Shown here: positions 36,604 to 43,938 of the stretch, in pieces
Numbering within the stretch: the first letter of the stretch is position 1
Layout of the letters: every line of letters starts with the position of its first letter
Source: Collimonas fungivorans
GTDB lineage: Bacteria > Pseudomonadota > Gammaproteobacteria > Burkholderiales > Burkholderiaceae_D
DNA: 64,000 nt
NCBI RefSeq assembly: GCF_001584145.1
Contig: NZ_CP013232.1
Coordinates: forward strand, 3,782,001 to 3,846,000
Reading direction: 5' to 3'
Notes under the pieces: generated by a model
The model's input: the letters and a program-made list of their open reading frames with translations, nothing else
Databases searched by the model: none
Told to the model about the DNA's origin: nothing
Made by a program: the position numbers and the translations under genes

Positions 36604-38493
36604 TTAACGTGCAAAGTCCGTGGTGTTCTTGACGAAGGTATTCAGGTTGCCGATATTCAGGCTACCGAAACCAGTAGTTGCATCCCAGCCTGCTGCTGCC
36701 TTGTAGCCGTACGAGCTGCTGGCGCCGTTGGTGCCGGAAGTCACGTCATGCAATAGCGAAGCGTTGGCGGCAACCGGGAAATACTTGTAGAAGCTGGCTG
36801 CCGGGAAACCCAGGGCATTGTTGTTGGCCGATTGCAGGCGGGCCCAGACGCCGGCGAAAATCGGCGCCGACAAGCTGGTGCCGCCGACCGTACCGGTCTG
36901 GGTGTTGTAGTAGATGGTGGCGCCGCTGGCGCTGGCGGCATCAAACGCGATGTCCGGCAGGCCGCGGGTGGTCTTGCCGGAAGCAATCACACCTGTTTGG
37001 TAAGTTGGCGCCGTTTCGTATTTGCTGTAGCCGCCGCCAGTTGCCCACAGGCGCTTGGTGGAATCGTAGTCGCCTGCGTCGTCGTAGGTGCCGATCGCGC
37101 TCAGGCCTTCGTTCCACACGGTTTCGCTGCTGTAGGCGCCGGAGTTGGTGTACAGGGTCGTGCCGCCGACAGCGATGACGTAAGGCGAAGTAGCCGGTTC
37201 GCTGACATCATAGGTCGACTTGTTTTTCGGTACGCCAGGCGCACCGGAAATCGAGCTGGTCTGGCAGTTGTAAGTACCAGCATCTCCGGTCGAAATGGAG
37301 AATGTCTGGCCTTGCGCCACAGCCTGCTTGAACACCTTGTCGTCAGCTGCCTGGGTGCCGTCGCTATGGGTATCCGATTCGCAGCCGCCGAGCGAAACGT
37401 TGATGACCTTGGCCACGTTGTCAGTCACTGCACGGTTGTAGGCTGCAGTGATGCCGCTGAAGCTCATGTCAGGCGACGCGTAGAAAATCAGCTGCTTGAC
37501 GCCGCCGGAAGTGCCTGTGATGGTCTGGCTGTCGAGGTTCCATTCGACTTGGCCGGAAGTGTCGCTATAGTCGGCGCCGGCAGCACCGGTTTTCACCACC
37601 AGGGTATTGACGGTGGCAAGGCCCTTGGCTGTAGTGAAGGTTTTCAGGTCGGTAATCGTCGGGCTGAGATCGCCTGCCGAGATGATGCCGACCACGGTGT
37701 TCGAAGCAGTCGGCGTGGTGCCGACGTTATAGATCGCAGGGAATTGCACCGGGCTGTGCGCTGTCGCCACCGGCGTTGCATTGACCGTGACTTTAGCCTG
37801 TGCGCTCACGCCGGCTTCAGGCGTCTGCACCCAGCGATGGTGGGTCTGGGCGATCGCAACGTTTTGCAAACCCAGCACCGAATCGACGATGCCGCTCAAT
37901 GCGGCAGGCACTTGTGCTGCATCGGTATTGGCAAACACCTTGCGGCCGTCTTGCTGGAAGCGTTTCAGCGCAGTGCGGAAGCCGGTTTGCACGGTGGCTG
38001 CAGTGCCGTCGGCTGTCACCAGCTGGCGGTTCGGCGCGACCTGGATGTTGACAAAACCGGACTTGCTCAGATGGGCAACCACTTTGGCCACATCTTTTTC
38101 CGTAGGCGCATATTCCGCGGCGAATTGCGCCGGTGTCAGGAATTTGCCGTAGGAAGCGGTGCCAGGTGTGTGCAGGTCCTGCAGGAACTTGTCGAGCTTG
38201 GCTTCATTGCGCAGGTTCAGGCTGAGCGTCACATGGACCGGTTCGCCTTGCGCCAGCTGCACGGCGGTTGCGGCTGGGGTTACCACGCTGGCATCGGCTG
38301 CCACGCTCTTTTGATTCGCTTGGACTTGCGGCAAGAACGCTTGGGTCTTGGTGGTGACCCAAGCGCTGTTGTCCGCCACGGCTGCGTGGACAGACAATGA
38401 TGCAAACACCAGGGACAGCGCCAATGACAACGCCGAAGCCTGGGGAATCGCAAAATTTGCTGCTAGTACTTTCGCTGATATTTCCGATTTCAT
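36604..38493 (-). CDS. S53 family serine-carboxyl peptidase (sedolisin/pseudomonalisin type), secreted
   Basis: 629 aa from the ATG at 38493, preceded by GAGGAA; the frame extends to 38589 without support. Signal peptide to about residue 40 (VHA-AVA), an activation prodomain (about 60-240), then the catalytic domain. The S53 triad reads Glu317 and Asp321 (VEWNLDSQ), Asp404 (STGDAG, oxyanion) and Ser540 (GGTSLSAP). The C-terminal calcium loop is visible (HDVTSGTNG and GWDATTGFG). These endopeptidases are active at acid pH and self-process, fitting a soil organism that acidifies its surroundings. Confidence 0.93.
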   Translation of the reverse strand: MKSEISAKVLAANFAIPQASALSLALSLVFASLSVHAAVADNSAWVTTKTQAFLPQVQANQKSVAADASVVTPAATAVQLAQGEPVHVTLSLNLRNEAKLDKFLQDLHTPGTASYGKFLTPAQFAAEYAPTEKDVAKVVAHLSKSGFVNIQVAPNRQLVTADGTAATVQTGFRTALKRFQQDGRKVFANTDAAQVPAALSGIVDSVLGLQNVAIAQTHHRWVQTPEAGVSAQAKVTVNATPVATAHSPVQFPAIYNVGTTPTASNTVVGIISAGDLSPTITDLKTFTTAKGLATVNTLVVKTGAAGADYSDTSGQVEWNLDSQTITGTSGGVKQLIFYASPDMSFSGITAAYNRAVTDNVAKVINVSLGGCESDTHSDGTQAADDKVFKQAVAQGQTFSISTGDAGTYNCQTSSISGAPGVPKNKSTYDVSEPATSPYVIAVGGTTLYTNSGAYSSETVWNEGLSAIGTYDDAGDYDSTKRLWATGGGYSKYETAPTYQTGVIASGKTTRGLPDIAFDAASASGATIYYNTQTGTVGGTSLSAPIFAGVWARLQSANNNALGFPAASFYKYFPVAANASLLHDVTSGTNGASSSYGYKAAAGWDATTGFGSLNIGNLNTFVKNTTDFAR

Positions 38494-38539
38494 TTGCTTA
38501 TTCCTCTTGAATGGAACAGATAAAAGACGCCGCAGCCCG

Positions 38540-38558
38540 GCATTGCGATCGGCAATGC
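38540..38558. promoter_or_regulatory. Inverted repeat upstream of the S53 protease (1)
   Basis: Arms GCATTGC (38540-38546) and GCAATGC (38552-38558) around GATCG, about 47 bp upstream of the protease ATG. It could be an mRNA leader hairpin or an operator. Confidence 0.4.
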
Positions 38559-38580
38559 AAAGTTGATTTGGCGCTGGAGT

Positions 38581-38603
38581 CTGCATCACCGGTTGTGATG
38601 CAG
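38581..38603. promoter_or_regulatory. Inverted repeat upstream of the S53 protease (2)
   Basis: Arms CTGCATCAC (38581-38589) and GTGATGCAG (38595-38603), a perfect 9-bp inverted repeat around five bases, 22 bp beyond the first inverted repeat. The pair suggests two operator sites or two leader stem-loops controlling the secreted protease. Confidence 0.45.
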
Positions 38604-38996
38604 GGTTTTAACGAGACGTGATGTCCGTTAACTGGATGGCCGCAGCGAGAGCGCTGGCGATGCCGGAAGATCGGGAGCTGCCGCGGTGCTGTGCGCTGCA
38701 ATTGATGAGCAGCGCGAGCGGCACGGGCGGATGGAGATCGAATTGAATCTGGTGCAAATCATGAGACTTCCCTCTTGAGGATTAACCACGGCATCGATGA
38801 CTCTTTTGGAGCGGATGCCGTGTGAAAAATCAACGCTTCACATCTTTTTTTATGATTCAAAACTATCTGTCTGACGATCCAGAATAAATCAATTGCGCTC
38901 AAGAAACAATAGAAATTGAACTGATATTTTCTTCTATCGAATCATGTATTTCGCTGCATCCATGTTTTCGTTAAAACCCCGTTAAAACCCTTGTAT
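38604..38996. other. Intergenic region, AT-rich, promoter of the S53 protease
   Basis: About 390 bp between the protease gene and the 3' end of the DMT exporter gene, with its AT-rich part at about 38820-38990. No coding frame of any quality. It should contain the protease promoter; I cannot point to a specific -35/-10 pair. Confidence 0.35.
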
Positions 38997-39989
38997 TCAT
39001 TGGCTCGAATCGATTCCCGCACCGATGATGGGAGCACTCTCCGGCTTGATATTCCGCGTCGAAAAAAACGCACCAAAATTAATCATCGAACGCGGCAATG
39101 TGGCCCATAAAGTGGCGCCGACAATCAGCGCGCCGCCGACCCAGGACAGCGCGCCAAGTTTTTCGCCGAGCCAGAAAGATGCGAACAGTGCGCCGAATAC
39201 CGGCTCGCTTCCCATCAACAGGGAAACCCGGGTCGGGTTGCTGCGCCGCAGTCCATAGTTCTGCGCAAAAAAAGCAAAGATGGTGCAAAACAACACCAGG
39301 TAAACCGTGCTCACCCAGAAGCTCGGGTCGCTTGGCAGCGGCGGCAATCCGCCTTGCATGAACAGGCTGGCGACCAGCAGGCAGCCGAAACCGACTACGC
39401 CGGATTGCACCGCGGTCAGGGTCAGGTTGGACATATCCTTGTCGACCGTCAGGCGTTTGGTCATGACCATCATGAAGGCGCGCAATAAAGCCGCCGCCAG
39501 CATCAGGCCGTCGCCCAGGTTGAATGTGAGGTTACTGCCGATGGTCAGCAGCCAGGTGCCGAAGAGCGAGACAAAAGCCACCACGAAGGCGCTGACCGGC
39601 GGCCGTTGCGCCATCACCAGCCATTCGACGAAAGGCGTGAAAACCACGCACAGGCTGATCAGGAAAGCGGCGTTCGAAGCCTGCGTCAGCGCTACGCCGA
39701 AGGTTTCGCAAATAAAGATGGCAAGCAGGATCAGGCCCAGCGGCACGCCGGCACGCAATGCCGCCCGTCCTTCCGGCCTGGCCAGCTGGCGCAGGCTGGG
39801 CAGCAGCAAAAAAAAGGTCATGCAAAACCGGATCGCGACAAATCCCAGCACCGGATAAAACACCAGCGCGTCCTTGGCGACGCCATAGCTGGTGCCCCAG
39901 ACGATCGCAACCAGCAGCAACAGCAAGTCGGCGAACCAGAGACCTTTGGCAGATGAGTTGGGGGATCGGCTGGCAGATGAGATCGTCAC
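38997..39989 (-). CDS. DMT-family exporter (EamA/RhtA-like)
   Basis: 330 aa from a GTG with CCGGAG upstream. About ten membrane helices in two EamA repeats (WGTSYGVAKDALVFYPVLGFVAIRF in the first; GLRRSNPTRVSLLMGSEPVFGALFASFWLGE in the second). RhtA-type members export threonine, homoserine and hydroxylated or unusual amino acids. It is downstream of, and on the same strand as, the amino-acid hydroxylase and ArgG-like genes, although a terminator-like hairpin lies between. A role in exporting their product is inferred. Confidence 0.85.
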   Translation of the reverse strand: MTISSASRSPNSSAKGLWFADLLLLLVAIVWGTSYGVAKDALVFYPVLGFVAIRFCMTFFLLLPSLRQLARPEGRAALRAGVPLGLILLAIFICETFGVALTQASNAAFLISLCVVFTPFVEWLVMAQRPPVSAFVVAFVSLFGTWLLTIGSNLTFNLGDGLMLAAALLRAFMMVMTKRLTVDKDMSNLTLTAVQSGVVGFGCLLVASLFMQGGLPPLPSDPSFWVSTVYLVLFCTIFAFFAQNYGLRRSNPTRVSLLMGSEPVFGALFASFWLGEKLGALSWVGGALIVGATLWATLPRSMINFGAFFSTRNIKPESAPIIGAGIDSSQ

Positions 39990-40031
39990 TTCGCTTTACT
40001 CCGGATAGCGCCACCGGCGCTATCAGTTAAG

Positions 40032-40070
40032 AAAAAAAAACGTTCCGCCTAGGTGGAGGCTGAGCGGAAC
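40032..40070 (-). terminator. Rho-independent terminator after the dioxygenase gene
   Basis: On the minus strand, arms GTTCCGC (40070-40064) and GCGGAAC (40048-40042) form a hairpin followed by G and then nine T. It lies about 80 bp beyond the dioxygenase stop (40153) and about 40 bp before the exporter start, so it should stop or attenuate transcription entering the exporter gene. Confidence 0.72.
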
Positions 40071-40152
40071 AAACGGCGGGAGCACCGAGGATATTGGTCA
40101 GGGGTAGATCACACTTAACTAAGCACACTCAATCAAGCACGCCTGGTTAAGC

Positions 40153-40902
40153 TTAAGTTCTGGTATAGGCAATCACCAGCACGTCTCTGAATGCTTCACG
40201 CTTGGCTTCATACGGCAGCACCTTGGTCACGCCGTGCATGGTGCGGGCATCGTCGGCCAGCATCAGGTCCATCGGATCGGTCAAGGTATAGCGGCACATC
40301 AGCTTGCCGGCGACATCGGTAATATAAGTTTCGCCGCCGGCCACGTTATGACGGCGCACCATCATGGTCACGATGTAGTCGACGCCGTCGCGGTGCAGCC
40401 CTTCCGGCGTCGGGTTGCCCGGAACATGGGAGCTGGCGCGTATGCGGTAAGGGTGCAGGCGGATATTCCATTTGCCGCTGTCGCCCTCGACCCTGTCGAA
40501 CACTTGCGCCAGCGACAGCAGCAGGCCGGACAGGAAAGGGTTATCGATGAAGTGCTGCTCGAGCGGCTCGAAATGGCGGGCAATATCGCCATTCAGTTTA
40601 TTGATGTAGCTTGGCTGCACGTATGGCGCATGCGGCAGCTGCTGCAGCACGCCTTCGGCACTGTCCAGTTCGAATGCGCTGTAGCGACGGAAACGATAGT
40701 TGCCGTTGTCGCCCATGTACTTGTCTTGCGGCAGGTTGTTCCAGCAGCTGGCGAACTCGTCCCAGGTCGCCGGATCGACATCGCAGGCAGCTTGCACGGC
40801 GCGGCCCGACATCACGCTGAATTGCCGCTGGCGCAGCTCGCTGCTGAGATGGTCGATAATGGGCGGGGCGATCCTGATGGGCGCCAAGACGTCGATTTCC
40901 AT
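40153..40902 (-). CDS. 2-oxoglutarate/Fe(II) dioxygenase, isoleucine-dioxygenase (IDO) type
   Basis: 249 aa of the 2OG-Fe dioxygenase family that includes L-isoleucine 4-hydroxylase of Bacillus thuringiensis (about 240 aa). The iron ligands are H170-x-D172 (GLHRDGVDY) and His223 (TMHGVTKV), with a likely 2OG-binding Arg239 (FRDVLVIAY). Known members hydroxylate free aliphatic or sulfur amino acids. Its ATG directly follows the TAA of the ArgG-like gene, implying coupled translation and a joint pathway. The actual substrate is unknown. Confidence 0.85.
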   Translation of the reverse strand: MEIDVLAPIRIAPPIIDHLSSELRQRQFSVMSGRAVQAACDVDPATWDEFASCWNNLPQDKYMGDNGNYRFRRYSAFELDSAEGVLQQLPHAPYVQPSYINKLNGDIARHFEPLEQHFIDNPFLSGLLLSLAQVFDRVEGDSGKWNIRLHPYRIRASSHVPGNPTPEGLHRDGVDYIVTMMVRRHNVAGGETYITDVAGKLMCRYTLTDPMDLMLADDARTMHGVTKVLPYEAKREAFRDVLVIAYTRT

Positions 40903-42141
40903 TTAGTTTTCCTCGGCCAGCAGCTTGCTGGCATCCAGCACGGAATTCGTCGGCAAAGAAAGCTGCCGGCTGGAGCGCTGCGCGGCAATATCCTTTTCCC
41001 AGCTGTCGCGGTCGGTCAGGTACAGCGGCGCATCGGCGCGGATCGCGCAGACATCGGCAGCGCCGGCGCGCAAGCGGTAGTTGACGGTGCCGCTGACATA
41101 TTGCACGGTTTCCTGGATGAAGCGATCGGTAGCGGCGCGCAGAGGCGTGAACCAGCGTCCTTCGATGGCTTCCCGCACCCACAATTGTTCCATGTGCAGT
41201 TTTTCGCGCAGCAGTTCAGCATCCAGCACCGCGGTCTCCAGGTGCCGGTACGCTTCCAGCAGCACCATGGCGGCCGGCGCTTCGCGTACTTCCAGCACCT
41301 TCTCGCCCTGCTCCAGATGTTCCAGGCCGCAATAGCGGCCGATGCCGAAGGCGCCGACACGGCGGTTCAGGTGTGCGATCAGTTCCACCAGCGGCAGAGC
41401 CTCGCCGTCGATGGCGACCGGGCGGCCGCCGTCGAACCTGATCGACAGCTCGCTGCTGACAGGCGCCGGATCGACCGCGGCAGTCCAGTCAAACAACGAT
41501 TCCGGCACCCAGAACGATTCCGGATTGTCGAGCGAACCGGATTCGAATTCTCGGCACCACAGGTTGGCGTCGCCGCTGATGCCGCGCGCCTGGAAGTGCG
41601 GCAGGCCGGCTGCGCGCAAGGCTTCGATTTTTTCTTCGCGGGAGATCGCGGTGTATTCGTAAGGCGTGCCGTAATAACCGGCGTAACCGAGTTGCGCAAT
41701 CGCGCCGTTCAGGCGGCGCAGGGTGTTCTGCGACTGGTTGGCGGTATGGACGATGGCGTTGCAGCCGAGGCGCAAGGCGGTTTCGACCGCGAAGCGGGCG
41801 ATGATCGGGCGCGACAGCGACGAGCTGATCGGATAGATGCCCATGTAGCGGGCATTGGCGCGGATCGCCGGCAGCACGGCATCTTCGGCGAACGCTTGCT
41901 GGCCGTCGATCACCAGCAGCTCGGCGCCGAAGTGCGCTGTGATCTGCTGCAGGTCGGCGGCGTTGATGCCCTCGCCCAGGTCCACCGTCAGCGCCGTGAC
42001 GCGGCAACCGCTGTCGACCAGGCACTTCAAGGCATAGGTACTATCCAGTCCACCACTGAACAAAGTCAGGACATGCTCGCAGTGAGCCGCAACCAGTTTC
42101 AGGTCGTCGATGCTGCGTATTCTTTTTAGCGGCTGAATCAT
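40903..42141 (-). CDS. Argininosuccinate synthase-like ATP-dependent ligase (divergent)
   Basis: 412 aa from the ATG at 42141, preceded by GGAG. The ATP-pyrophosphatase loop FSGGLDST (28-35) and the NLWCREFESGSLDNPE block match argininosuccinate synthase throughout. However, the segment that is normally AHGCTGKGNDQVRFE and contacts aspartate/citrulline reads VHTANQSQNTLRR (131-143). The catalytic scaffold is kept while the substrate pocket differs, so it probably joins other partners, for example an amino acid to a carbonyl or ureido group via adenylation. Fused to the dioxygenase gene (TAA then ATG). A housekeeping argG would be elsewhere. Confidence 0.8.
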   Translation of the reverse strand: MIQPLKRIRSIDDLKLVAAHCEHVLTLFSGGLDSTYALKCLVDSGCRVTALTVDLGEGINAADLQQITAHFGAELLVIDGQQAFAEDAVLPAIRANARYMGIYPISSSLSRPIIARFAVETALRLGCNAIVHTANQSQNTLRRLNGAIAQLGYAGYYGTPYEYTAISREEKIEALRAAGLPHFQARGISGDANLWCREFESGSLDNPESFWVPESLFDWTAAVDPAPVSSELSIRFDGGRPVAIDGEALPLVELIAHLNRRVGAFGIGRYCGLEHLEQGEKVLEVREAPAAMVLLEAYRHLETAVLDAELLREKLHMEQLWVREAIEGRWFTPLRAATDRFIQETVQYVSGTVNYRLRAGAADVCAIRADAPLYLTDRDSWEKDIAAQRSSRQLSLPTNSVLDASKLLAEEN

Positions 42142-42277
42142 GGGCGCTCCGACATTCAAAAACTAGATAGTATGAATAAATCAATAAAAACAATCACTAA
42201 TGAATGTAATTATGTTTTATTCCAGCAAATACGATAATCTATGTATTCAGAACAACACTTGTGCACGGCGGGAACAA
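42142..42277. promoter_or_regulatory. Divergent promoter region, ArgG-like operon and LysR gene
   Basis: 136 bp, strongly AT-rich against the GC-rich surroundings, separating the divergent ArgG-like and LysR genes. This is the classical place for a LysR regulator to act on its neighbour. An ATTCA (42154-42158)/TGAAT (42173-42177) pair and several T-N11-A choices exist; none stands out. Sites are inferred, the low-GC gap is seen. Confidence 0.5.
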
Positions 42278-43231
42278 ATGGGAGCTAATCGATATATCAA
42301 GCTGATGCCGGACATGGCAGTGTTCGTCCGGGTAGTGGAAACCGGCAGTTTTTCGACTGCGGCGCTGGAGCTTGGCATGACGCCCTCGGCTGTCAGCCGC
42401 CAGGTGTCGCGTTTGGAACAGGCATTATCCGTCAGATTGCTGGAACGCACCACCCGCAAGCTGCGCCTGAGCGAATCCGGCAGCGAAGCCTACCAGCGCT
42501 GCCTGGAGATGGTGGGCGCGGCCAAGGCGGCGATGGAGGTCGCAGACAAGTTCGTTGCGGTGCCGCAGGGCCTGCTGCGGGTCGGCATGCCGAAAGCCTT
42601 CGGCAAGGGCGTGGTGACGCCGCTGATTGCCAGTTTCCTCGAAAAATACCCGCAGGTCGATGTGCAGCTGATACTCACCGACCGCCACGTCGACCTGATC
42701 AACGACGACGCCGACCTGGTGATCCGCATTACCAGCCAGCCGGCCGACGGCCTGGTGGCGCGGCCGCTGATGTCGATCGACCAGGTGCTGTGCGCCACCC
42801 CCAGCTACCTGGCCCAGCACGGCACGCCGAAACAGCCGCAAGACCTGTGCAGCCACAGTTGTCTCTATCTGGGCGAAAATCCAGGCGACTCCGACTGGCA
42901 CTTCATGCGCCAGGGCGAAACCACCATCATCAAGGTGCGCGGCCGTTATATCGTCAACCACAGCGAAGCGCGCCTGGACGGCGTGCTGCAGAACCTGGGC
43001 ATCGGCTGCCTGCCCTACTTCATCGTGCGCAACGCCCTTGAGCAAGGGCTGGTCAAAGCCGTGCTCACCGACTGGGAATTCATCGCCGCCTACCAGGGCA
43101 CGGCTTTCATACAGTACTTGCCGACGCGCTACCTGGCGCCAAAAATGCGTGTCTTCATCGACCATCTGGCGTCGCACATGGAAGCCGACCTGAAACCCCT
43201 GGACCGGCGGCGCCTGGCGTCCGACAAATGA
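42278..43231 (+). CDS. LysR-family transcriptional regulator
   Basis: 317 aa from the ATG at 42278 with GGGA upstream; the frame opens at 42200 but the extra residues are atypical. Winged helix at the N-terminus (FVRVVETGSFSTAALELGMTPSAVSRQVSRLEQALSVRLLERTTRKLRL), with the subgroup pattern MPDMAVFVRVVE, then the effector domain. Divergent from the ArgG-like/dioxygenase operon, which it probably controls. Its TGA overlaps the ATG of an amidase gene. Confidence 0.9.
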   Translation: MGANRYIKLMPDMAVFVRVVETGSFSTAALELGMTPSAVSRQVSRLEQALSVRLLERTTRKLRLSESGSEAYQRCLEMVGAAKAAMEVADKFVAVPQGLLRVGMPKAFGKGVVTPLIASFLEKYPQVDVQLILTDRHVDLINDDADLVIRITSQPADGLVARPLMSIDQVLCATPSYLAQHGTPKQPQDLCSHSCLYLGENPGDSDWHFMRQGETTIIKVRGRYIVNHSEARLDGVLQNLGIGCLPYFIVRNALEQGLVKAVLTDWEFIAAYQGTAFIQYLPTRYLAPKMRVFIDHLASHMEADLKPLDRRRLASDK

Positions 43232-43938
43232 AGCGGCTGGCCGGCGGCAAGCTGGTCCTGGCGGCTGCCGGCCTGGTTTTACTATACGGCCTCCCGGCCG
43301 CCGGCTGCGGCGCCCAGCAGGTGGTGGTCGATACCGGCCATACCACGGAGAATCCCGGCGCCACCGGCCCCGGCGGCAGCCGCGAGTTCGACCTCAACCG
43401 GCAATTCACCCTCGCCCTCGGCCTGGCATTAAAAGCGCAGGGACTGGATGTGATCGATGTCGCCGCGCAAGGCTCGCCGCCCTCCTTGCCGGCGCGGACC
43501 AAAGCCAGCGCCAAGGCGGCGCTGTTCGTTTCCATCCATCACGATTCGATGCAGCAAGCCTGGCTCGACGCCGGCAGGAGCCGCGAATTTTCCGGCTACG
43601 CATTGTTTGTTTCCGCCAGCAAGCCATACTACGCGCGCAGCCTGGACTGCGCCAAAAGCATCGGCCTCCGCCTGCAGGACATCGGCGAACACCCTTCGCT
43701 GTATCACGCCGTTCCTGTCCCGGGTGAAAACCGCCCTTTGCTTGACCGCCAGCTGGGCATCCATCGCTTCGACGAACTGGCGGTGCTGAGGACCGCCGAA
43801 TCACCAGCCTTGCTGATCGAGGTCGGCGTGCTGGCCAATCCCGACCAGGAGCCGCGCCTGGCGTCGCCGCAGTTTGCCGGCAAAGCCGCCCGCGCCGTCG
43901 CCGCCGGCATACGGCAGTGCCTGCCCGCGACGCCCTAG
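43228..43938 (+). CDS. N-acetylmuramoyl-L-alanine amidase (Amidase_3), exported
   Basis: 236 aa. A signal sequence (KLVLAAAGLVLLYGLPAAGCGA; the Cys may make it a lipoprotein) precedes a single Amidase_3 domain with zinc ligands in VVDTGHT, the Glu of SREFDLN, the His of VSIHHDS and the catalytic Glu of LLIEVGVLANP. It cleaves the amide between MurNAc and L-Ala. It lacks the AMIN domain of AmiB/AmiC. It overlaps the LysR stop by four bases (ATGA), although the two functions look unrelated. Confidence 0.88.
   Translation: MKRLAGGKLVLAAAGLVLLYGLPAAGCGAQQVVVDTGHTTENPGATGPGGSREFDLNRQFTLALGLALKAQGLDVIDVAAQGSPPSLPARTKASAKAALFVSIHHDSMQQAWLDAGRSREFSGYALFVSASKPYYARSLDCAKSIGLRLQDIGEHPSLYHAVPVPGENRPLLDRQLGIHRFDELAVLRTAESPALLIEVGVLANPDQEPRLASPQFAGKAARAVAAGIRQCLPATP

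What the first reader, a model, noticed from the sequence alone, without database searches (positions are those of the whole stretch)
38997..43231. Possible new amino-acid metabolite pathway: ArgG-like ligase + IDO-type hydroxylase + RhtA-like exporter + LysR
Seen: an argininosuccinate-synthase homologue keeping the FSGGLDST ATP loop and the NLWCRE block but with the aspartate/citrulline segment (normally TGKGNDQVRFE) replaced at residues 131-143; its TAA is directly followed by the ATG of a 2OG-Fe dioxygenase with intact H170/D172/H223; a DMT exporter follows and a LysR gene is divergent across an AT-rich gap. Known: IDO-family enzymes hydroxylate free amino acids and RhtA-type proteins export such compounds. 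Inference: the cell makes a modified amino acid (hydroxylated, then ligated, or the reverse) and secretes it. I know of no described pathway with this pairing.
Basis: partly seen in the sequence, partly recalled or inferred. Interest (0 to 1): 0.75.

Follow-up and report, generated by a model that had tools for sequence, protein, structure and literature searches.

The report
Predicted exported nitrile amino-acid cassette
A soil bacterium carries a small gene set that most likely turns the side-chain amide of a common amino acid into a nitrile, oxidises the molecule and pumps it out; similar sets recur in distantly related bacteria, so it may be a widespread way to make a secreted amino-acid weapon or signal.

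Summary
The genes are as described. The ArgG-like protein (ASSL) is not the housekeeping argG; the genome has a canonical one elsewhere. 'Ligase' is probably wrong. ASSL's closest solved sequences are 'nitrile synthetase' 9lei/9leh (E 1e-102; taken to be ArtA). It scores 624.6 against NF038212 (cut-off 425) and falls below the cut-off of the five canonical ArgG models listed. It keeps ArtA's amide-contacting residues at the same spacing, has lost the GKGND motif, and that sequence nests inside its clade. Best reading: an ATP-dependent amide-to-nitrile dehydratase, probably on Gln or Asn. The pairing is real: dioxygenase near ASSL in 64 of 86 loci, exporter in 59; fused in Rhizobium; both genes in the same 10 of 15 Collimonas genomes, while four others keep only regulator and exporter. 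Model: a hydroxylated nitrile amino acid, exported by a DMT pump under LysR control. Activity, substrate and product are untested. The parts are known kinds; the combination was not seen in the listings of my literature searches.

The parts
38997..39989 (-). EamA/DMT-family exporter, 330 aa (GTG start)
   Evidence: Pfam PF00892, 2 stretches, 115.7 bits; homologue within 3 kb of ASSL in 59 of 86 loci; kept without ASSL-DIOX in 4 Collimonas genomes
40031..40100 (-). Conserved Collimonas-only non-coding element: C-rich 5' part, then an inverted repeat (40070-40041) followed by a run of T (40040-40032); candidate small RNA or terminator between dioxygenase and exporter
   Evidence: matched in 14 of 15 Collimonas genomes; 27-nt core in 14 of 245 family genomes, all Collimonas; no Rfam match up to E 1.
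40153..40902 (-). DIOX: 2OG-Fe(II) dioxygenase of family PF10014, 249 aa, Fe ligands H170/D172/H223, R239 invariant
40903..42141 (-). ASSL: argininosuccinate-synthase-related protein, predicted ATP-dependent nitrile synthetase, 412 aa (long ORF from TTG 42159 is 418 aa); its TAA abuts the ATG of DIOX
   Evidence: NF038212 624.6 bits, cut-off 425; 9lei/9leh E 1e-102; Q144/S195/D197 in 418-aa numbering; column counts; tree
42142..42277 (.). AT-rich divergent intergenic region; the block 42210-42241 is nearly invariant in 8 Collimonas sequences and lies in the stretch that still aligns in four genomes without ASSL-DIOX; candidate LysR operator/promoter
   Evidence: no sigma-70 consensus match found in 38800-43300
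42278..43231 (+). LysR-type regulator, divergent (likely start 42278; the ORF opens at ATG 42200)
   Evidence: PF00126 and PF03466; homologue within 3 kb of ASSL in 41 of 86 loci; start argument

Best explanation
A cassette that makes and secretes an oxidised side-chain-nitrile amino acid. Step 1 (ASSL, inferred from the ArtA family): the side-chain amide of Gln or Asn, or of its hydroxylated form, is adenylated by ATP; because the aspartate site of ArgG is gone, no nucleophile adds, and AMP is eliminated to leave a nitrile. Step 2 (DIOX, inferred from PF10014): Fe(II)/2OG oxidation of an aliphatic carbon, most likely hydroxylation, before or after step 1. Step 3 (EamA/DMT exporter, inferred): efflux of the free amino acid, which also protects the producer. 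LysR, divergent, controls the unit. In other lineages the pair sits beside peptide synthetases, where the residue would go into a peptide. Shown here: gene order, family assignment, residue conservation, co-occurrence and fusion. Inferred: substrate, product, order of steps, export, regulation, biological role (antimetabolite or signal).
For: Nearest PDB chains are 'nitrile synthetase' 9lei/9leh (E 1.2e-102, 1.6e-102), ahead of the canonical ArgG chain 4u7j (3.5e-47). NF038212 624.6 bits over a cut-off of 425; the five canonical ArgG equivalog models listed are below cut-off. ArtA's amide contacts Q146/S197/D199 (named in PMC13060819) have their spacing matched once in ASSL, as Q144/S195/D197. 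In 91 family rows against 15 canonical ArgG rows: position 144 is Q in 90 against G in 15; 143 is S in 91 against K in 15; 146 is S or T in 91 against D in 15; WCREF is present in 91. Canonical ArgG forms one side of the tree (support 100) and 9lei nests inside the ASSL clade next to four rhizobial plasmid ASSL (100). DIOX near ASSL in 64 of 86 loci, exporter in 59, all three partners in 40; 0 of 15 canonical argG loci have any of them. Phylum sample: 5 of 398 genomes carry ASSL over the cut-off, and all 5 have DIOX and exporter beside it (for the window); two of the five are Collimonas and two share one genus with the same fused protein, so three independent cases. ASSL-DIOX in one open frame in L089 (Pfam) and in L143/L144. 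Both families in exactly the same 10 of 15 Collimonas genomes. Precedent for a PF10014 enzyme with an RhtA exporter making a presumably excreted antimicrobial amino acid: IDO operon (PMC3684760 passages).
Against: No activity, substrate or metabolite was measured. Two of the three ArtA residues (S195, D197) are also invariant in the 15 canonical rows, so only Q144 and the neighbouring block discriminate. Position 281 is H in 91 of 91 ASSL rows but P in 9lei, so the pockets differ and the substrate may too. 22 of 86 loci have no detected DIOX within 3 kb, so ASSL does not need it. ASSL and DIOX distances correlate only moderately (r 0.58, against 0.87 for ASSL-exporter). In Collimonas a terminator-like element separates DIOX from the exporter. 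The loci are the best 80 of 147, biased to near relatives. That 9lei is ArtA is inferred; the ArtA papers were not read.
Confidence: 0.62

Rival explanations
1. ASSL activates the amide as an adenylate, but a group of the same molecule (the alpha-amine or the hydroxyl set by DIOX) attacks it, giving a cyclic amidine or cyclic imidate amino acid instead of a nitrile.
For: Activation chemistry would be the same; DIOX could supply a hydroxyl; co-conservation and fusion suit a coupled substrate.
Against: ArtA/NitB are described as catalysing only amide-to-nitrile dehydration (PMC13060819), and ASSL keeps the amide-contacting residues.
Confidence: 0.12
2. One reading: ASSL remains a condensing ligase joining an amino acid to a different nucleophile.
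For: ATP loop and ArgG-type domains retained.
Against: The GKGND motif is lost in all 91 rows (D at 146 in 0 of 91, K at 143 in 0 of 91); the nitrile synthetase 9lei nests inside the clade.
Confidence: 0.1
3. DIOX does ring formation rather than hydroxylation, as its relatives HrmJ and BelL do on a nitro amino acid, giving for instance a cyano-cyclopropane amino acid.
Confidence: 0.08
4. The exporter and LysR are an unrelated older unit, and ASSL-DIOX is a cargo whose product stays inside the cell.
For: Four Collimonas genomes have LysR-exporter without ASSL-DIOX; terminator-like element before the exporter.
Against: Exporter beside the pair in 59 of 86 loci and in several phyla, also with a different gene order on rhizobial plasmids; exporter and LysR trees place those four genomes as one clade inside a 12-row Collimonas clade with the cassette-bearing ones, which fits loss of the pair.
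Confidence: 0.08

Closest known systems
ArtA / NitB ATP-dependent nitrile synthetases (auranthine pathway; PDB 9lei, 9leh taken to be ArtA)
   Same: Closest solved sequences; same amide-contact pattern; 9lei nests inside the bacterial family
   Different: Described for an NRPS product; here paired, and in some genomes fused, with a PF10014 dioxygenase and an exporter; H281 replaced by P in 9lei
IDO and Hil operons (Bacillus thuringiensis; Pantoea, Pseudomonas)
   Same: PF10014 dioxygenase on a free amino acid, RhtA-type exporter in some, LysR in Hil; proposed excreted antimicrobial amino acids (PMC3684760 passages)
   Different: Those have a reductase, and in Hil a second dioxygenase; no ArgG-related protein is named in the passages seen. 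DIOX scores 34.8 against the HilB model (cut-off 350)
Canonical argininosuccinate synthase (ArgG)
   Same: Arginosuc_synth and C-terminal domains
   Different: The five ArgG equivalog models listed are below cut-off; GKGND block lost; separate side of the tree, support 100
HrmJ / BelL cyclopropanases and TqaL aziridine enzyme
   Different: About 26-32% identity; act on 6-nitronorleucine or on valine/isoleucine (PMC10764440 passages); partner enzymes differ

Membership tests
ArtA-type nitrile synthetases / NF038212 argG_rel | Score over the NF038212 cut-off (425) | tested here: met
   624.6 bits
ArtA-type nitrile synthetases / NF038212 argG_rel | Amide-contacting residues equivalent to Q146, S197, D199 | tested here: met
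   Q144, S195, D197 at spacing 51 and 53; only Q144 discriminates from ArgG
ArtA-type nitrile synthetases / NF038212 argG_rel | Same clade as 9lei, apart from canonical ArgG | tested here: met
   Quick IQ-TREE tree, canonical on one side with support 100, 9lei nested; several long branches
ArtA-type nitrile synthetases / NF038212 argG_rel | ATP-dependent conversion of an amide to a nitrile | not testable with these tools
   needs an enzyme assay
Canonical argininosuccinate synthase | Score over an ArgG equivalog cut-off | tested here: not met
   227.6/334, 218.7/268.2, 217.5/512, 121.4/603, 58.9/657
Canonical argininosuccinate synthase | GKGND aspartate-binding motif (role recalled) | tested here: not met
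   QSQNT in its place
PF10014 amino-acid dioxygenases | HxD...H iron ligands and family score | tested here: met
   230.9 bits; H170, D172, H223 in 29 of 29
PF10014 amino-acid dioxygenases | Oxidation of a free L-amino acid | not testable with these tools
   needs an enzyme assay
HilB isoleucine dioxygenase | Score over the NF042428 cut-off (350) | tested here: not met
   34.8 bits
RhtA exporters | Match to an RhtA-specific model | tested here: inconclusive
   No RhtA model listed at E 0.01; TIGR00950 80.9 against 230.2, YedA 56.5 against 270; EamA domain met
IDO / Hil operon | Reductase (and, in Hil, HilA and HilP) beside the PF10014 gene | tested here: not met
   The next genes outside the cassette are a sedolisin-type peptidase and an amidase; only the immediate flanks were looked at

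The most novel reading that the evidence does not exclude
If DIOX puts the hydroxyl on the carbon that carries the nitrile, the exported compound is an amino-acid cyanohydrin, which would break down outside or inside a competitor to release hydrogen cyanide: a secreted, amino-acid-shaped cyanide carrier made in two steps from Gln or Asn, with the exporter as self-protection. The four Collimonas species that keep exporter and regulator but lack the two biosynthetic genes would then be immune non-producers.
Probability: 0.06. Interest if true: 0.9.

Novelty: new variant of a known kind. Interest (0 to 1): 0.62.

Why it matters
It assigns a testable reaction to a protein family that NCBI names only 'argininosuccinate synthase-related' and that several sources call argininosuccinate synthase, and it ties that family to a dioxygenase and exporter in three phyla, four if a cyanobacterial MAG contig is trusted. 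If right, free nitrile amino acids made by bacteria are an overlooked class of secreted metabolite, with an ATP-dependent nitrile synthetase as a genome-mining handle. The Collimonas contrast (10 genomes with the pair, four with exporter and regulator only) gives a ready test of whether the exporter is an immunity gene.

Tried and rejected
Rejected: ASSL as the housekeeping ArgG; ASSL as an ordinary ligase; DIOX as HilB; a known RNA family before the exporter (no Rfam match up to E 1). Led nowhere: A-domain specificity codes of neighbouring NRPS genes, read by hand-made motifs, gave no clear Asn- or Gln-like prediction; the promoter scan found no sigma-70 match, and its terminator scan listed 9 sites (shuffles mean 4.6) but not the stem I point to. 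The first ORF caller and clustering were poor in GC-rich loci and were replaced.

Literature: searches (20 of 727 listed; 1 of 2; 0; 20 of 58; 15 of 141; 5 of 6) were listings of titles and abstract starts; none of those listed describes the pair. The library holds open-licence papers only, so absence from print is not shown. Searches were for the dioxygenase family, auranthine, PDB codes and HrmJ/BelL. Papers seen beyond listings: PMC13060819 (passages; part 1 of 2 of the Discussion); passages of PMC10764440, PMC3684760, PMC8948231 and PMC11637627. Zeng 2025 and Kishimoto 2025 on ArtA/NitB were seen only as citations inside PMC13060819. That auranthine's nitrile comes from Gln is recalled; its formula C19H14N4O2 fits.
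Full report
WHAT IS THERE. The window lies in a 5.6-Mb one-contig genome. The nearest ASSL loci are Collimonas; L003, a Collimonas fungivorans MAG contig, is 99.8% identical over 418 residues. On the minus strand run ASSL (40903-42141), DIOX (40153-40902; the TAA of ASSL abuts its ATG) and an EamA/DMT exporter (38997-39989); a LysR gene diverges. The likely starts, ATG 42141 for ASSL and ATG 42278 for LysR, differ from the longest ORFs.

ASSL IS NOT ARGG. The genome has a second gene at C1:4226081-4227301 that scores 512.5 against TIGR00032, where ASSL scores 218.5 against a cut-off of 268.2. ASSL passes NF038212 'argininosuccinate synthase-related' at 624.6 (cut-off 425) and none of the five canonical models listed. 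The best PDB chains are 9lei and 9leh, named nitrile synthetase (E 1.2e-102 and 1.6e-102), then canonical ArgG 4u7j (3.5e-47).

WHY A NITRILE SYNTHETASE. [quoted passage not shown] That 9lei/9leh are ArtA is inferred from the molecule name. A Q with S 51 and D 53 residues further on occurs once in ASSL (Q144, S195, D197) and once in the stretch of 9lei searched (chain position 175); the offset of 29 from the paper's numbering is inferred from the spacing. S195 and D197 are invariant in both groups, so they do not discriminate; H281 (91 of 91) is P in 9lei. The tree (104 rows; three near-identical Collimonas rows of the 91 left out) puts the 15 canonical rows on one side (100) and 9lei inside the ASSL clade, next to four rhizobial plasmid proteins (100); several branches are long. 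That the GKGND block binds aspartate in ArgG is recalled. The inference is that the amide is adenylated but no aspartate can add, so AMP leaves and a nitrile forms.

THE PAIR AND THE CASSETTE. Of 86 loci outside the window genome (80, which kept the best 80 of 147, and 6 of the 8 plasmid hits), a DIOX homologue lies within 3 kb in 64, an EamA homologue in 59, LysR in 41, and all three in 40. None of the three is found in 15 canonical argG loci of 3.0-4.2 kb. A sample of 398 genomes of the phylum had ASSL over the cut-off in 5: the window's, another Collimonas, one of the same class, and two of one genus with the same protein; all five have DIOX and exporter beside it. Loci with pair plus exporter come from Pseudomonadota, Actinomycetota, Myxococcota and, as one MAG contig that groups with Dyella and could be misbinned, Cyanobacteriota. 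On rhizobial plasmids typed conjugative the order is exporter-ASSL-DIOX (L087-L090); in Bradyrhizobium (L086) the pair stands without an adjacent exporter. Distances of ASSL correlate with those of exporter (r 0.87, 35 loci), LysR (0.91, 24) and, less, DIOX (0.58, 40); 0 of 999 permutations reached any of these.

DISTRIBUTION AND LOSS. ASSL is rare: 1 of 369 genomes of the class sample, 3 of 399 of the order sample, 10 of 15 of the genus. PF10014 occurs in exactly the same 10 of 15. Four of the other five keep LysR and the exporter, divergent, at the same place between the amidase and the sedolisin gene, without the pair; the fifth has a 1.7-Mb genome without the non-coding element either and was not looked at further. 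Exporter and LysR of those four form one clade (96, 99) inside a 12-row Collimonas clade (99 in both trees). Since other genera share the four-gene order, loss of the pair as a unit with exporter and regulator kept is the simpler reading; gain is not excluded, and the non-coding element sits before the exporter in one group and after it in the other, so it was not one clean deletion. Retention of the exporter fits an immunity role.

OTHER CONTEXTS. After an NRPS with at least three adenylation domains and before a seryl-tRNA-synthetase-like gene (Salmonella enterica subsp. diarizonae, L030), and with TauD, an AMP-ligase and an NRPS (Burkholderia cenocepacia, L085); near an NRPS in Mesorhizobium (L088); without DIOX next to an adenylation-carrier protein and an ATP-grasp protein in Streptomyces (L056). 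These suggest that the residue is built into peptides elsewhere.

VERDICT. My estimates: nitrile formation by ASSL about 0.8; free Gln or Asn (or hydroxylated form) as substrate about 0.65; oxidation by DIOX in the same pathway about 0.85, as hydroxylation about 0.65; export of the product about 0.7; the model in outline 0.62. The parts are known kinds; none of the papers listed describes the combination, but those listings were capped and leave out most subscription journals.

Noticed in passing
window 40031-40100 (-); L124-L127: A roughly 70-nt non-coding element with a C-rich stretch and terminator-like end, one match in each of 14 of 15 Collimonas genomes and none in the 230 other genomes of the family sample; it lies before the exporter when ASSL-DIOX is present and after it when absent. 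Candidate small RNA.
   Followed up: partly
window 40004-40024 (-): Perfect 9-bp inverted repeat GATAGCGCC/GGCGCTATC just upstream of the exporter start.
   Followed up: no
window 43228-43938 (+): N-acetylmuramoyl-L-alanine amidase gene overlapping the LysR stop by 4 bp; also beside LysR in the four Collimonas genomes without the cassette.
   Followed up: no
window 36604-38589 (-): Pro-kumamolisin/sedolisin-type peptidase gene downstream of the exporter, at the same place in the five other Collimonas genomes looked at.
   Followed up: no
L030 9986-11374: Seryl-tRNA-synthetase-like gene directly after ASSL-DIOX in an NRPS cluster of Salmonella enterica subsp. diarizonae; could be a self-protection or aminoacyl-transfer part.
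   Followed up: no
L024 9380-9881: The dioxygenase match in Pandoraea horticolens falls into two pieces in different frames: broken gene or sequencing error.
   Followed up: no
P0118 (protein only): An ASSL relative (63% identity) is listed as shared by the Pseudomonas syringae group; its neighbourhood was not seen.
   Followed up: no
L016, L029: Two Burkholderia loci have ASSL without DIOX, followed by a fumarylacetoacetate-hydrolase-like gene and, on the other strand, an aldehyde dehydrogenase gene (families by Pfam on L016; homologues in L029 by clustering).
   Followed up: no
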